Part shown: positions 408 through 17,637 of the stretch, piece after piece
Position numbering within the stretch: position 1 is the stretch's first letter
Layout of the letters: each line of letters starts with the position of its first letter
DNA from: Cryobacterium sp.
GTDB taxonomy: Bacteria; Actinomycetota; Actinomycetes; Actinomycetales; Microbacteriaceae
DNA length: 64,000 nt
Assembly (NCBI RefSeq): GCF_025463825.1
Contig: NZ_JAODBG010000119.1
Location: 62,001 to 126,000, forward strand
Direction: 5' to 3'
Notes under the pieces: generated by a model
What the model saw: only the letters and a program-made list of their open reading frames with translations
What the model was told of the DNA's origin: nothing
Databases searched by the model: none
Program-made: the position numbers and the translations under genes

Positions 408-917
408 TCATGCGGCGCTCTGCGCGGCCGGCGCGAGGAACTCGTCCCACTGCGGCAGCGGCCGCTCCACCCCGCTCAGGGTCCACGTCGTACCCTGCGG
501 CATCCGCGGGTTGAAGTGCATGGCCCAGCCCATTTCCGCGGGGGTGCGGTCGCTTTTGAGGTTGTTGCAGCGCAGGCAGCAGGCGACCAGGTTGTCCCAG
601 GTGTCGCGGCCGCCGCGGGACCGCGGCTGCACGTGGTCGATGGTGCTGGCGGATTTGCCGCAGTAGCAGCAGCGGTGCTCGTCGCGCCGCAGCACCCCGC
701 GCCGGCTGACCGGCACCGACCGGGAGCGCGGCAGGCGCACGTACCGGGTGAGCAGGATGACGCTGGGCCGCTCCCACGGCCCGGTGGCCGCCCACACCGG
801 GTGGCCTTGGTCTGCCTGGATGATGGTTGCCTTCTGATTCATGACGAGCACGAGTGCACGCTTGAACGAAACGACCGCAAGGGGTTCATACCCTGCGTTG
901 AGGACCAGTGTGCGCAT
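408..917 (-). CDS. HNH endonuclease family protein
   Basis: The 169-aa product begins MRTLVLNAGYEPL and has an HNH nuclease fold in its second half: two CxxC-type pairs (CCYCGK and CCLRCNN) that would bind zinc, and the S-T-I-D-H-V core that supplies the metal-coordinating His. This compact HNH family is widespread in Actinobacteria; its physiological substrate is not established. The ATG at 917 was chosen because GGGAG lies 5 nt upstream and the conserved MRTLVLN start fits; an open frame extends further 5' without a better site. It is preceded by an unusual leader with an upstream ORF and two terminators, suggesting conditional expression. Confidence 0.88.
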   Translation of the reverse strand: MRTLVLNAGYEPLAVVSFKRALVLVMNQKATIIQADQGHPVWAATGPWERPSVILLTRYVRLPRSRSVPVSRRGVLRRDEHRCCYCGKSASTIDHVQPRSRGGRDTWDNLVACCLRCNNLKSDRTPAEMGWAMHFNPRMPQGTTWTLSGVERPLPQWDEFLAPAAQSAA

Positions 918-11239: not shown

Positions 11240-12535
11240 CTACCCCGACAACGGGAGAAGCAGGTCTTCCAAGGCTATGTTCTCATCCGTGAGCCGGTTC
11301 GCCTCCACCCGCACGCCCGAGCGGATGAGGCGCTGCACGGTCTCGTTCACGCCCCAGACGTTCACGTTCATGCCTGCGACGACCTGCCCGTCGGCGAGCC
11401 AGAAGGCCACGAATCTCCGCCCCGCCCGGTCACCGCGGAACACGACGTCCGCCTGCGCGGCGAGCTCGCCGAAGCCCGAGTACTCCATCCCCAGGTCGAA
11501 CTGGTCGGTGTAGAAGTACGGGATCGCGTCGTACTCGGTGGTGTCGCCCAGTATCGCCCGACCGGCCGCGGCGCCGGCGGTGTCGGCGTTGGCCCAGTGC
11601 TCCACCCGCATCCGGTGGCCCAGCCTGGGGTGGAAGACGTTGGCGACGTCGCCGACGGCGAAAACATCGGGGTCGCTCGTGGCAAACGTCGCCGAGGCGG
11701 CGATGCCGTTCTCCACGCTCAGGCCGGACCCCAGCGCCAGCTGGGTGTTCGGGGTGGCGCCGAGGCCCACCACCACGAGATCCGCGCGCACCAGGGTGCG
11801 ATCGCTCAGCCGTACCCCGGTCACCCGGGTGCCGCCGCTGCGGCTCTCCCCCTCCAGCTCGACCACCGTGGTGGAATTGCCCACGTGAACGCCGTGGTCG
11901 CGGTGCAACTGCTCGAAGACCGCGCCGACCTCGGCGCCGACCGCGGAGGCCAGCGGAACGGCGCCACGCCCCAGCACGATCGCCTCGTTGCCGTAGCCCC
12001 TGGCCGCGGCGGCGACCTCCAGCCCGATCCAGCCGGTACCGATGATCACCACCCTGCGGCCGCCCGCCGCCAGCGCGGTCCGCAGGCGCTCGGAATCGGC
12101 CAGGCTGCGCAGATAGTGCACGCCGGGCAGGCTCGCCCCAGGCCCGGGAAACGGCCGCGGCGACGCGCCCATGGCCAGCAGCAACCGGGAATACCGGACG
12201 GTGCGGCCGTCGTCGAGGGTCAGCCGGTGCCCGCCCCGGTCGAGCACCGCCGCCCGGTGCCCCGCGATCCGCTCGATCCCGTTCTCGGCATACCAACCGA
12301 CCGGATGCACGTCGACGACGTCCCGCCCGGCGGTGCCGGCCAGGTACTCCTTCGACAGCGGCGGGCGGATGTACGGGGCGTCGATCTCCTCCCCGATCAG
12401 CAGCACCCGTCCGGTCGAGCCCGCGCGCACGGCCTCAGCCGCCCGGGCTCCGGCCAGGCCGGCGCCGACGATCACCACCGGCTCGTCCGCAGGGTCCCCC
12501 GGGGTGCCCGATTCTCCGATTCCCCGCTCCACCAT
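11240..12535 (-). CDS. FAD-dependent NAD(P) oxidoreductase, ferredoxin-reductase type
   Basis: A 431-aa flavoprotein with two dinucleotide-binding folds: VVIVGAGLAGARAAEAVR near 20-37 (FAD) and VVIIGTGWIGLEVAAAA near 160-176 (NAD(P)H). The late FAD motif is DVFAVGDVANV near 285-295. It resembles reductases that pass electrons to ferredoxins or Rieske proteins of oxygenase systems; no partner is nearby. GAGGGG lies 5 nt before the ATG. Divergent from the response regulator at 12688. Confidence 0.87.
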   Translation of the reverse strand: MVERGIGESGTPGDPADEPVVIVGAGLAGARAAEAVRAGSTGRVLLIGEEIDAPYIRPPLSKEYLAGTAGRDVVDVHPVGWYAENGIERIAGHRAAVLDRGGHRLTLDDGRTVRYSRLLLAMGASPRPFPGPGASLPGVHYLRSLADSERLRTALAAGGRRVVIIGTGWIGLEVAAAARGYGNEAIVLGRGAVPLASAVGAEVGAVFEQLHRDHGVHVGNSTTVVELEGESRSGGTRVTGVRLSDRTLVRADLVVVGLGATPNTQLALGSGLSVENGIAASATFATSDPDVFAVGDVANVFHPRLGHRMRVEHWANADTAGAAAGRAILGDTTEYDAIPYFYTDQFDLGMEYSGFGELAAQADVVFRGDRAGRRFVAFWLADGQVVAGMNVNVWGVNETVQRLIRSGVRVEANRLTDENIALEDLLLPLSG

Positions 12536-12675
12536 GGCTTCCCCTCGCCCCGGTTGGTTCCCGCACGACCCGTCGAGGACGACGGTATCGGCATCAGCCC
12601 CGCACCGGAAGGGCTACCGGCCCGAGACTGCGCGGGCATACCGCCCACTCTCAGGGAAGCATCAGCTAACGCGCA

Positions 12676-12681
12676 GATACT
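12676..12681 (+). promoter_or_regulatory. -10 hexamer of the response regulator gene
   Basis: GATACT ends 6 nt before the ATG at 12688, again with no ribosome site, consistent with a leaderless transcript. Confidence 0.45.
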
Positions 12682-12687
12682 AGGGGC

Positions 12688-13380
12688 ATGACTGACGGCC
12701 CCCGCATCCTTATCGTTGACGACGAACCCAACATCCGGGATCTCCTCACCACCAGCCTCCGCTTCGCCGGTTTCGCCGTGCGCGCCGTCGGCAACGGTGC
12801 CCAGGCGATTTCCGCGGTCCTGGAGGAAGAGCCCGACCTCATCATCCTGGACGTCATGCTGCCGGACATGAACGGCTTCGGCGTCACCAAGCGCCTGCGT
12901 TCGGCCGGTTACACCGCCCCGATCCTGTTCCTCACGGCCAAGGACGACACCGAAGACAAGATCACCGGCCTGACCGTGGGCGGCGACGACTACGTCACCA
13001 AGCCGTTCAGCCTCGACGAGATTGTCGCCCGGATCAAGGCGATCCTGCGCCGCACCATGCACGCAGATGAAGACGCGGTGATCCGTGCCGGTGAACTCAC
13101 CATGGACCAGGACACCCACGAGGTCCTCGTCGGCGACCAGCCCATCGAGCTCAGCCCCACCGAGTTCAAGCTGCTGCGCTACCTGATGCTCAACCCCAAC
13201 CGGGTGCTCTCCAAGGCGCAGATCCTCGATCACGTTTGGGAATACGACTTCAACGGCGATGCGGGCATCGTGGAATCCTACATCTCGTACCTGCGCCGCA
13301 AGGTCGACATGCACTCCAGCGAGCCGCTGATCCAGACCAAGCGCGGCTTCGGATACATGCTCAAGGCCGCGAAGGCTTAG
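12688..13380 (+). CDS. OmpR-family response regulator
   Basis: The 230-aa protein has a receiver domain (1-120; acidic pocket D11/D12, phosphoacceptor D55 in IILDVMLPD, KPF lysine near 107) and a winged-helix DNA-binding domain (about 130-228, ending TKRGFGYML). It starts 36 nt-plus upstream of a sensor kinase, which is its likely partner. The regulon is not shown by the sequence. Confidence 0.93.
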   Translation: MTDGPRILIVDDEPNIRDLLTTSLRFAGFAVRAVGNGAQAISAVLEEEPDLIILDVMLPDMNGFGVTKRLRSAGYTAPILFLTAKDDTEDKITGLTVGGDDYVTKPFSLDEIVARIKAILRRTMHADEDAVIRAGELTMDQDTHEVLVGDQPIELSPTEFKLLRYLMLNPNRVLSKAQILDHVWEYDFNGDAGIVESYISYLRRKVDMHSSEPLIQTKRGFGYMLKAAKA

Positions 13381-13398
13381 ACGCTCAGGATCGTTTCC

Positions 13399-13404
13399 TA
13401 GACT
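13399..13404 (+). promoter_or_regulatory. -10 hexamer before the sensor kinase
   Basis: TAGACT ends 6 nt before the kinase ATG at 13411. It suggests the kinase also has its own leaderless transcript. Confidence 0.5.
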
Positions 13405-13410
13405 GGAACA

Positions 13411-15243
13411 ATGCATGTGGCCCTGATGGACCGATGGAGCCGGGTTTCGCTCCGCTCCAAGATCACCGGTGTCACCGTGCTGATGCTCACGCTCGGCCTG
13501 CTCGTTTCCGGTGTGGGGACCATGGTGATCCTGCGCAACTACGTGGTGCAGCAGGTGGATTCCAGCCTGCAGACCGAGGCGCAGACCCTCCTGACCAATT
13601 ATCTGTCGTCCCCGCTGGACGAGGGCAGCGCCAACGTGGACTCGGACTACTTCGTCGCGGTCTACGACCAGAACGGCGTCCTCAAGGACCGCACCTGGCG
13701 GGACCGTCCGCGCGCGAGCCTGCCGGTGGTCACCATGCAGCTCGACCTGCACAGCGTGATCAGCCTGGACGGCACCGTGCAAAAGCTCTCCGACGCCGAG
13801 GGCGACACCGAGTTCCATGCCGTGGCGGTGCCCTTCGTGATCAACTCCACCGGCACCTACGGCACCCTGCTCATGGCCGTGTCGATGCAGCCGACCCAGA
13901 ACACCGTCAACACCTACCTGAGCATCTTCCTCGGCTTCGGCGTCGGCGTCGTGGTCGTGGGCGCCATGCTCACCCGGCTGCTGGTCACCACGACGTTCGT
14001 CCCGTTGCGCGAGGTGGAGCGCACGGCCGCCGCCATCGCGGACGGCGACTTCAGCCAGCGCCTCGGCGGCGCCACCCCCAACACCGAGGTCGGCCGGCTC
14101 AACCGGTCCCTCAACACCATGCTCAGTCGCATCGACCGGGCGTTCAAGGACCGTGCCCGCACGATCGACCAGATGCGCCGGTTCGTCGGCGACGCCAGCC
14201 ACGAGCTGCGCACCCCGCTCGTGTCGGTGCGCGGCTACGCGGAGCTCTACCGGATGGGCGCCCTGCAGAGCCCGGAAGAAGTGGCCCAGGCCATGCAGCG
14301 CATCGAGAAGGAAGCCATCCGGATGGGCGGCCTGGTTGAAGACCTGCTCGAACTGGCCCGACTGGACGAGACCAAGCCCCTGGTGCTCACCCGCGTCGAC
14401 CTGCTGCCCCTCGCCCAGGACGCCGCCCTGGATGCCATGGCCTCCTCGCCCGGCCGCCGGGTCAGCGTACTCACCAGCCACCCCACCGTTTACGATGACG
14501 CCGACCCCGAACCGCACATCGACCTGGGCCACTCCACCGGCGAGGTCCTCGGCGCCGCGCCGACGCCGTCGTCACCCGAGCTGCCGGCGGCGCCGGCACC
14601 CACGGCCAAGGCCGCCGCAGCCGCCGCCAAGGCCGCCGCGTCCGCTTCCGCCAAAGCTGCGGCCGCCGCGGCCGCCAAGCCCACCGCCCGTTCGGACCAG
14701 TCCGGGTCCACGACCGGCACCGTCTCCTTCGCCGGTGCCACGCTCGCCCGCCTGCGCACCCGCCGGCCTCGCCGAACGGATGTGCCCGCATCCGTCGCCG
14801 ACCCGTCCACCGCGCCGATGCCGGAACCGCCGCCCCTGGAGGCGGTGATCATGGCCGAGGAGAACAAGGTGCGCCAGGTCATCACCAACCTGATGGGGAA
14901 CGCCCTGCGATTCAGCCCCGATGACAGCCCGGTGGAGCTTGAGGTGACCGTCGACCGGCGCAATGAGCGGGCGTCGATCTCGGTGATCGATCACGGCGAG
15001 GGCATCCCGCCGCAGATCCGCGACAAGATCTTCCAGCGTTTCTGGCGTGCGGACACGTCCCGTGCCAGGGAGACCGGTGGCAGCGGCCTGGGGTTGGCGA
15101 TCGTGGCGTCGATCGTGGCCAGCCACAACGGTTCGGTCGAGGTCCTGGAGACGCCGGGCGGCGGTGCGACCTTCCGGGTCTGGTTCCCCCTGGCGGACTC
15201 GTCGGCGGCCCCGCAGGCGCTGGCTACGCCCACCCTGTCCTGA
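13411..15243 (+). CDS. HAMP sensor histidine kinase with an Ala/Lys-rich insert
   Basis: The 610-aa protein has a membrane segment near 18-40, an extracytoplasmic sensor region to about 168, a second membrane segment near 170-195, HAMP near 190-245, HisKA with phosphoacceptor His264 in DASHELRTPL, and an HATPase with N box NLMGNA near 493-498 and G boxes DHGEGIP and GGSGLGLAI. Between the first ATPase strand (about 349-355) and the N box lies an extra, roughly 120-residue Pro/Ala/Lys-rich low-complexity stretch (about 357-478). Most kinases have only a short loop there. It pairs with the upstream regulator. A second ATG at 13426 is possible. Confidence 0.92.
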   Translation: MHVALMDRWSRVSLRSKITGVTVLMLTLGLLVSGVGTMVILRNYVVQQVDSSLQTEAQTLLTNYLSSPLDEGSANVDSDYFVAVYDQNGVLKDRTWRDRPRASLPVVTMQLDLHSVISLDGTVQKLSDAEGDTEFHAVAVPFVINSTGTYGTLLMAVSMQPTQNTVNTYLSIFLGFGVGVVVVGAMLTRLLVTTTFVPLREVERTAAAIADGDFSQRLGGATPNTEVGRLNRSLNTMLSRIDRAFKDRARTIDQMRRFVGDASHELRTPLVSVRGYAELYRMGALQSPEEVAQAMQRIEKEAIRMGGLVEDLLELARLDETKPLVLTRVDLLPLAQDAALDAMASSPGRRVSVLTSHPTVYDDADPEPHIDLGHSTGEVLGAAPTPSSPELPAAPAPTAKAAAAAAKAAASASAKAAAAAAAKPTARSDQSGSTTGTVSFAGATLARLRTRRPRRTDVPASVADPSTAPMPEPPPLEAVIMAEENKVRQVITNLMGNALRFSPDDSPVELEVTVDRRNERASISVIDHGEGIPPQIRDKIFQRFWRADTSRARETGGSGLGLAIVASIVASHNGSVEVLETPGGGATFRVWFPLADSSAAPQALATPTLS

Positions 15244-15783: not shown

Positions 15784-17637
<1,854 letters not shown>

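What the first reader, a model, noticed from the sequence alone, without database searches (positions are those of the whole stretch)
13411..15243. Histidine kinase with a 120-residue Ala/Lys-rich insertion inside the ATPase domain
The catalytic core is split: the first ATPase strand (about 349-355) is separated from the N box (about 493) by a Pro-rich, AKAAAAAAKAA-like and RTRRPRR-containing stretch. The rest of the domain is canonical. The tract resembles histone-H1-like tails and could bind DNA, membrane or a partner, or regulate the kinase.
Basis: partly seen in the sequence, partly recalled or inferred. Interest (0 to 1): 0.5.

Follow-up and report, generated by a model that had tools for sequence, protein, structure and literature searches.

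The report
Sensor kinase loop with conserved motif
A bacterial sensor kinase found across one actinobacterial family carries a long floppy loop in its ATP-binding domain that shows off a short, strongly conserved basic motif, probably a docking site for something not yet identified.

Summary
The ORF at 13411-15243 is a canonical HAMP/HisKA/HATPase_c kinase with about 115 extra residues (about 357-475) between two CA-domain strands. The Ala/Lys tract is a lineage-specific spacer (2 of 105 inserts). What is conserved is a roughly 21-residue element, T-G-P-I-x-F-A-G-A-T-L-A-R-L-R-x-R-R-P-R (window 436-456): 96 of 105 inserts match its core, at most 3 of 105 after shuffling. Its dN/dS is 0.04-0.18, like the folded domains (0.01-0.17); the linkers beside it run at 0.34-0.87. 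AlphaFold leaves it unfolded. All 36 orthologues examined from other families lack the insert. In a 100-genome family sample 79 have it (37 seen in sequence, 42 inferred from a motif hit), 1 has a short form, 17 lack it and 3 gave no orthologue. This fits an early gain with several losses. Best reading: a tethered linear docking motif on the catalytic domain, partner unknown. H1-like DNA binding is disfavoured (3% Lys, near-neutral).

The parts
12688..13380 (+). cognate OmpR/PhoB-type response regulator (230 aa), 30 bases upstream of the kinase
   Evidence: Pfam Response_reg + Trans_reg_C; best solved relatives are chains of M. tuberculosis PhoP, E 1.4e-79, next other protein E 1.4e-48; present in 65 of 65 Microbacteriaceae loci longer than 11.5 kb
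13411..15243 (+). sensor histidine kinase, 610 aa
   Evidence: one full-length match in the window's genome, the other 17 matches are pieces of paralogues at 25-45% identity
13450..13995 (+). two transmembrane helices flanking an extracytoplasmic sensor domain (about residues 14-195)
   Evidence: AlphaFold helices 14-66 and 160-210 with a mixed alpha/beta domain between them; membrane assignment by inspection
13996..14133 (+). HAMP domain, residues 196-241
   Evidence: PF00672, E 1.2e-10
14173..14370 (+). HisKA (DHp) domain, residues 255-320, with phospho-acceptor His264 in SHELRTPL
   Evidence: PF00512, E 2.9e-18; H264 invariant in 105 rows
14479..14835 (+). the insertion, residues about 357-475, between CA strands 351-355 and 479-482
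   Evidence: block-mean pLDDT 33-62 over residues 361-470
14605..14679 (+). Ala/Lys/Ser run (residues 399-423), variable spacer, weakly predicted helix 399-419
   Evidence: 25-residue run; elsewhere only a 16-residue run in L004; weak 9- and 12-base tandem repeats; helix at low confidence
14716..14778 (+). conserved linear motif, residues 436-456, GTVSFAGATLARLRTRRPRRT
   Evidence: R449 is listed among the at-least-90% columns of the 105-row alignment
14860..15195 (+). HATPase_c (rest of CA domain), residues 484-595, with N box and G boxes
   Evidence: PF02518, E 6.9e-30

Best explanation
This is an ordinary membrane-bound histidine kinase of the actinobacterial PhoP-PhoR-like type. Early in the family Microbacteriaceae its CA domain acquired an unfolded loop between two surface strands. 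The loop works as a flexible tether (33-178 residues on the N side of the motif core, 16-58 on the C side) that presents a short hydrophobic-then-basic linear motif. The motif docks on a partner in trans, most likely a protein: the cognate response regulator, another cytoplasmic protein, or a membrane-associated complex. Docking would change how often the CA domain reaches His264 or how well the phosphoryl group reaches the regulator. Shown: the insert, its disorder in models, the motif, purifying selection on it, its taxonomic range and its absence from part of the family. Inferred: that absences inside the family are mostly losses, that the motif binds something, and that binding regulates the kinase. 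Unknown: the partner.
For: Motif core in 96 of 105 inserts versus at most 3 of 105 in 500 shuffles (the 105 include many near-duplicates from Cryobacterium and Curtobacterium). Over 81 distinct 26-mers the columns R 0.99, L 0.95, R 0.88 and R 0.88 stand out. dN/dS of the motif 0.11, 0.12, 0.18, 0.04, 0.12, 0.15 in six groups, against 0.34-0.75 (N linker) and 0.45-0.87 (C linker). Mean net charge -3.2, +5.3, -2.3 for N linker, motif, C linker (n = 96). Insert and motif unfolded and undocked in two AlphaFold models. The motif profile hits kinase-sized or contig-end frames in 55 of 100 family genomes; of the 24 inserts read in the remaining genomes, 12 still match the loose core. Precedent: the disordered C-terminal tail of Streptococcus WalK carries a conserved W-acidic motif needed for WalR binding (PMC9087282, abstract and outline seen).
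Against: No partner was identified. 17 of 97 family orthologues do without the insert, so it is not needed for basic kinase function. 12 of 79 family inserts do not match even the loose core pattern (2 of 8, 10 of 16), so some lineages keep the loop but not the motif. One specific version, the response regulator as partner, was tested two ways. The regulator is more diverged at equal kinase-core identity in the 4 insert-free orthologues tested of 17 known (residuals -3.7 to -9.0; two of the four are close kin), but this is post hoc and not phylogenetically corrected, and inserts without the motif show no clear trend (mean -1.85, range -11.1 to +6.2, n = 8). No regulator surface patch tracks the insert: 2 positions besides the start Met out of 168 conserved ones.
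Confidence: 0.5

Rival explanations
1. Membrane anchor: the hydrophobic-then-basic motif binds the acidic inner leaflet and holds the CA domain near the membrane until a signal frees it.
For: The kinase has two predicted membrane helices. The motif is +3 to +7 and preceded by I/F/A/L residues. The linkers are long enough in principle.
Against: Helical hydrophobic moment of the motif is low in four of five homologues tried (0.05-0.12; 0.32 in L070), and 482 of the protein's 598 13-mers score as high or higher than the window's motif, so it is not a classical amphipathic helix. Specific residues (G, T, P) are conserved beyond charge and hydrophobicity.
Confidence: 0.17
2. Phospho-switch: the Thr of TGPI is phosphorylated by a PknA/PknB-like Ser/Thr kinase, linking Ser/Thr and His-Asp signalling.
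For: TxxPhi (Phi = I, V, L, M) lies upstream of the core in 71 of 96 motif-bearing inserts, versus shuffled mean 19, maximum 30; in 68 of 96 the Thr is exactly 10 residues before LARLR. Phosphopeptides reduced on depletion of M. tuberculosis PknA are enriched for Pro at +2 and Leu/Val at +3 (PMC7164672, passages seen); TGPI has Pro +2 and Ile +3.
Against: The pattern is missing in 25 of 96, ten of them Cryobacterium homologues that keep most of the rest. The same paper's acidic residues upstream and basic residue at +4 are not features of the motif. Ser/Thr kinases are present in 12 of 12 genomes tested, four insert-free ones included, so presence does not discriminate.
Confidence: 0.12
3. Intramolecular regulator: the motif docks on the kinase's own DHp or CA domain and inhibits or activates it.
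For: It is tethered within the catalytic domain, and its charge is opposite to that of the linkers.
Against: Neither AlphaFold model docks it: motif pLDDT about 33-40. Monomer models can miss weak or dimer-dependent docking, so this is not strong.
Confidence: 0.12
4. Nucleic-acid or histone-H1-like binding.
For: RxRRPRR cluster and Ala/Lys tract in the window.
Against: Lys is 3% and the insert is about neutral overall. The A/K tract is in 2 of 105. Conserved hydrophobic I/F/L positions are unexplained.
Confidence: 0.05
5. Passive insertion: a tolerated spacer without function.
For: Absent from 17 of 97 family orthologues, 14 of these 17 in genomes of 2.2 Mb or less. Linkers evolve fast.
Against: Purifying selection on the motif in six of six groups; composition shuffles do not give it.
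Confidence: 0.04

Closest known systems
Actinobacterial PhoP-PhoR-like two-component systems
   Same: Response regulator closest, among solved structures, to M. tuberculosis PhoP. The kinase's DHp domain matches PDB 5ukv (that 5ukv is M. tuberculosis PhoR is recalled, the call names it only an ATP-binding protein). Same HAMP-HisKA-HATPase_c order.
   Different: The roughly 115-residue CA insertion with motif. All 36 other-family orthologues examined lack it; M. tuberculosis PhoR itself was not examined.
WalK of Streptococcus/Staphylococcus with a disordered C-terminal W-acidic tail (PMC9087282, abstract and outline seen)
   Same: A disordered segment of a histidine kinase carrying a conserved short motif.
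   Different: There it is a C-terminal tail, acidic with Trp, and reported to bind WalR. Here it is an internal CA-domain loop, basic, partner unknown.
HK853-type CA domain (T. maritima, 4jas/3dge)
   Same: Sequence matches on both sides of the insert and structure matches to the model.
   Different: HK853 has 17 residues where the window has about 129 between the two matched stretches (alignment).

Membership tests
HisKA/HATPase_c sensor histidine kinase | HAMP, HisKA with phospho-acceptor His, HATPase_c with N and G boxes | tested here: met
HisKA/HATPase_c sensor histidine kinase | adjacent cognate response regulator | tested here: met
   window and 65 of 65 loci longer than 11.5 kb
Actinobacterial PhoP-PhoR orthologue | regulator closest to PhoP among solved regulators | tested here: met
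   E 1.4e-79 versus 1.4e-48 for the next other protein
Actinobacterial PhoP-PhoR orthologue | reciprocal orthology of the kinase with M. tuberculosis PhoR | not tested
   no search of that genome was made; only a DHp match to 5ukv
WalK / MtrB equivalogs (NCBIfam) | score above the curated cut-off | tested here: not met
   207.1 bits against 725 and 201.5 against 450
Histone-H1-like Ala/Lys tail | Lys-rich, strongly basic composition | tested here: not met
   K 3%, net charge about 0
Short linear docking motif in a disordered region | short conserved element inside a fast-evolving unfolded segment | tested here: met
Short linear docking motif in a disordered region | binds a defined partner | not testable with these tools
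   no partner known

The most novel reading that the evidence does not exclude
An actinobacterial family evolved a new way to control a sensor kinase: a disordered loop grown out of the ATPase domain carries a selected docking motif that couples the kinase to a second input (a partner protein, the membrane or Ser/Thr phosphorylation), and the module has been removed repeatedly during genome streamlining.
Probability: 0.4. Interest if true: 0.62.

Novelty: new variant of a known kind. Interest (0 to 1): 0.45.

Why it matters
Histidine kinases are usually thought to be tuned through sensor, HAMP and DHp parts, with the CA domain treated as a fixed engine (general knowledge). A loop in the CA domain with a conserved motif, present in most of one family and absent from parts of it, offers natural pairs (for example L125 with the insert and L098/L186 without, in one supported clade) for testing whether a kinase can take a second input through its ATPase domain.

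Tried and rejected
Histone-H1-like tail: rejected on composition. Amphipathic helix: not supported by the hydrophobic moment, L070 excepted. Motif in other proteins: the order-wide search (16 of 297 genomes at E 0.001 or better) gave 11 family genomes and 5 others. Three of those 5 (f9) lie in a frame that looks like a glutamate-cysteine-ligase-type enzyme (label recalled; sequences) and are taken as chance; two (f7, 98-aa frames) were not examined. In the family search, 6 genomes also have a second, weak hit (E 0.001-0.009, frames of 27-251 aa), not followed up. Four of the 59 positive genomes had only hits in frames that do not fit the kinase (G020, G014, G026, G074); I moved these to the group examined one by one. 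Response regulator as partner: weak, post hoc, no surface patch. Ser/Thr kinase presence: no discrimination. Tandem-repeat origin of the A/K tract: only weak 9- and 12-base repeats. Literature: no paper on this insert in the listings (open-licence PMC only; listings, not full texts); so 'not found', not 'unpublished'.

Rows dropped or special: L075 gave no kinase frame and was left out throughout. L118 and L199 are cut by a contig or stretch end. The 9 of 105 inserts without the core pattern are L038, L045, L077, L079, L094, L095, L118 (cut), L124 and L164; several keep a recognisable variant. The 115-row tree left out 30 rows of 145: 19 Curtobacterium, 10 Cryobacterium and, by an oversight in my list, L051 (Terrimesophilobacter). 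The 79-row tree used 79 of 175 rows and counted L206 (29 residues) as without insert; both trees are quick searches without bootstrap. In one search CryoC shares four rows with CryoA/CryoB, and the Acti group has near-saturated synonymous sites (pS up to 0.69).

Full report
What is there. The ORF at 13411-15243 (+) encodes 610 residues with HAMP 196-241, HisKA 255-320 and HATPase_c 484-595. A PhoB-type response regulator lies 30 bases upstream (12688-13380). Its nearest solved relative is M. tuberculosis PhoP (E 1.4e-79; the next other protein E 1.4e-48). NCBIfam equivalogs such as WalK and MtrB are far below their cut-offs. The genome holds one full-length match; the other 17 matches are pieces of paralogues.

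The insertion. AlphaFold with 105 orthologue rows gives a CA fold with strands 351-355 and 479-482 on either side of the insert and the N-box helix 484-501. Residues 361-470 have block-mean pLDDT 33-62, with one low-confidence helix (399-419) over the Ala-rich tract. A second model, of the cytoplasmic part of a short-insert orthologue (L029, 83 rows), also leaves insert and motif unfolded. The insert therefore sits in a loop and does not break the catalytic core.

What is conserved in it. I aligned 145 orthologues (105 with insert, 40 without). Insert length runs 45-214 aa (median 79; window 120 by this measure; the 45 is a row cut at a contig end). The linkers are variable, but 96 of 105 inserts contain the core pattern (loosely LARLR followed by an Arg) and 42 contain exact LARLR. 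In 500 composition shuffles of the same inserts the maxima were 3 and 1. I defined the pattern after looking at the first alignment, and the 105 rows include many near-duplicates, so the shuffle test measures composition effects only. The codon test is the stronger support: in six groups of 7-24 sequences, motif dN/dS is 0.04-0.18, DHp 0.01-0.11, CA core 0.05-0.17, N linker 0.34-0.75 and C linker 0.45-0.87. Over 81 distinct 26-mers the strongest columns are R 0.99, L 0.95, R 0.88 and R 0.88, with I/V, F, A, G, A, T upstream. The Ala/Lys tract that prompted the finding is a lineage-specific spacer (2 of 105).

Where it occurs. A sensor-domain profile found orthologues in 91 of 119 genomes of the order, 83 of them outside the window's family. 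I fetched 36 of those 83; all 36 lack the insert (spacing 37-63; the longest, L158, has 27 residues where the insert would be). Within the family I took a 100-genome sample. In 55 the motif profile hits a kinase-sized or contig-end frame; 13 of these 55 were read and all 13 are this kinase. The other 45 were examined one by one: 12 (8 with insert, 4 without) and 33 (16 with insert, 1 with a short insert, 13 without, 3 with no orthologue found). In sum: 79 with insert (42 of them by the motif hit alone, not by sequence), 1 short, 17 without, 3 without a match. Of the 24 inserts read among the 45, 12 match the loose core and 12 do not. Of the 17 without insert, 14 have genomes of 2.2 Mb or less; of the 79 with, 5 do (sizes; several of the 17 are pairs from one genus, so they are not independent). 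On a 79-row tree the trait needs at least 5 changes, 4 of them forced by well-supported branches. Since the 8 outgroup rows lack it, this fits one early gain and several losses. The status of one early-branching group of small genomes (L099, L202, L204, L205, L209) is open: primitive absence or loss.

What it may do. A short, selected, hydrophobic-then-basic element between flexible linkers of opposite charge is the usual anatomy of a docking motif. I favour docking to a partner in trans (0.5). Membrane binding (0.17) is weakened by a low helical moment in four of five homologues tried. A Ser/Thr phospho-switch at TGPI (0.12) has a good register (68 of 96 at the same spacing), but the TxxPhi pattern is missing in 25 of 96, and Ser/Thr kinases occur also in insert-free genomes (12 of 12 tested). 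Self-docking (0.12) is not seen in models. DNA binding of H1 type (0.05) does not fit the composition. The cognate regulator as partner is an attractive special case: at equal kinase-core identity, the regulator is more diverged in the 4 insert-free orthologues tested (residuals -3.7 to -9.0; 13 others were not tested). But this is post hoc, not corrected for relatedness, insert-bearing rows without the motif show no clear trend, and no patch of regulator residues follows the insert.

Comparison with what is known. It is a member of the HisKA/HATPase_c sensor kinases and lies beside a PhoP-like regulator. The insertion with its motif was not found in my searches of open papers (listings only). 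The nearest concept is the disordered W-acidic tail of WalK that binds WalR (PMC9087282; abstract and outline seen), which is at the C terminus and acidic. I therefore class it as a new variant of a known kind.

Noticed in passing
window 15784-17415 (-): A GroEL gene (named by inspection) lies convergent and directly downstream of the kinase; a match to it is present in 64 of 65 Microbacteriaceae loci longer than 11.5 kb.
   Followed up: partly
window 12688-13380 (+): The response regulator is very conserved within the family (mostly 84-96% identity to the window among the rows printed, lowest 72%) but only 63-66% in seven other-family loci.
   Followed up: partly
L089:1495-3630: An orthologue with a 214-residue insert, the longest seen.
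   Followed up: no
window 14533-14547 (residues 375-379): A second small element, STGEV: TGE[VIL] occurs in 32 of 105 inserts, in Cryobacterium and Curtobacterium among others.
   Followed up: no
window 12472-14532 (-): A 686-aa open frame on the opposite strand of the regulator and kinase; probably a by-product of high G+C, not tested.
   Followed up: no
L038: Candidatus Lumbricidophila keeps a 110-aa insert that lacks the motif core, and its regulator is unusually diverged (79.6%).
   Followed up: no
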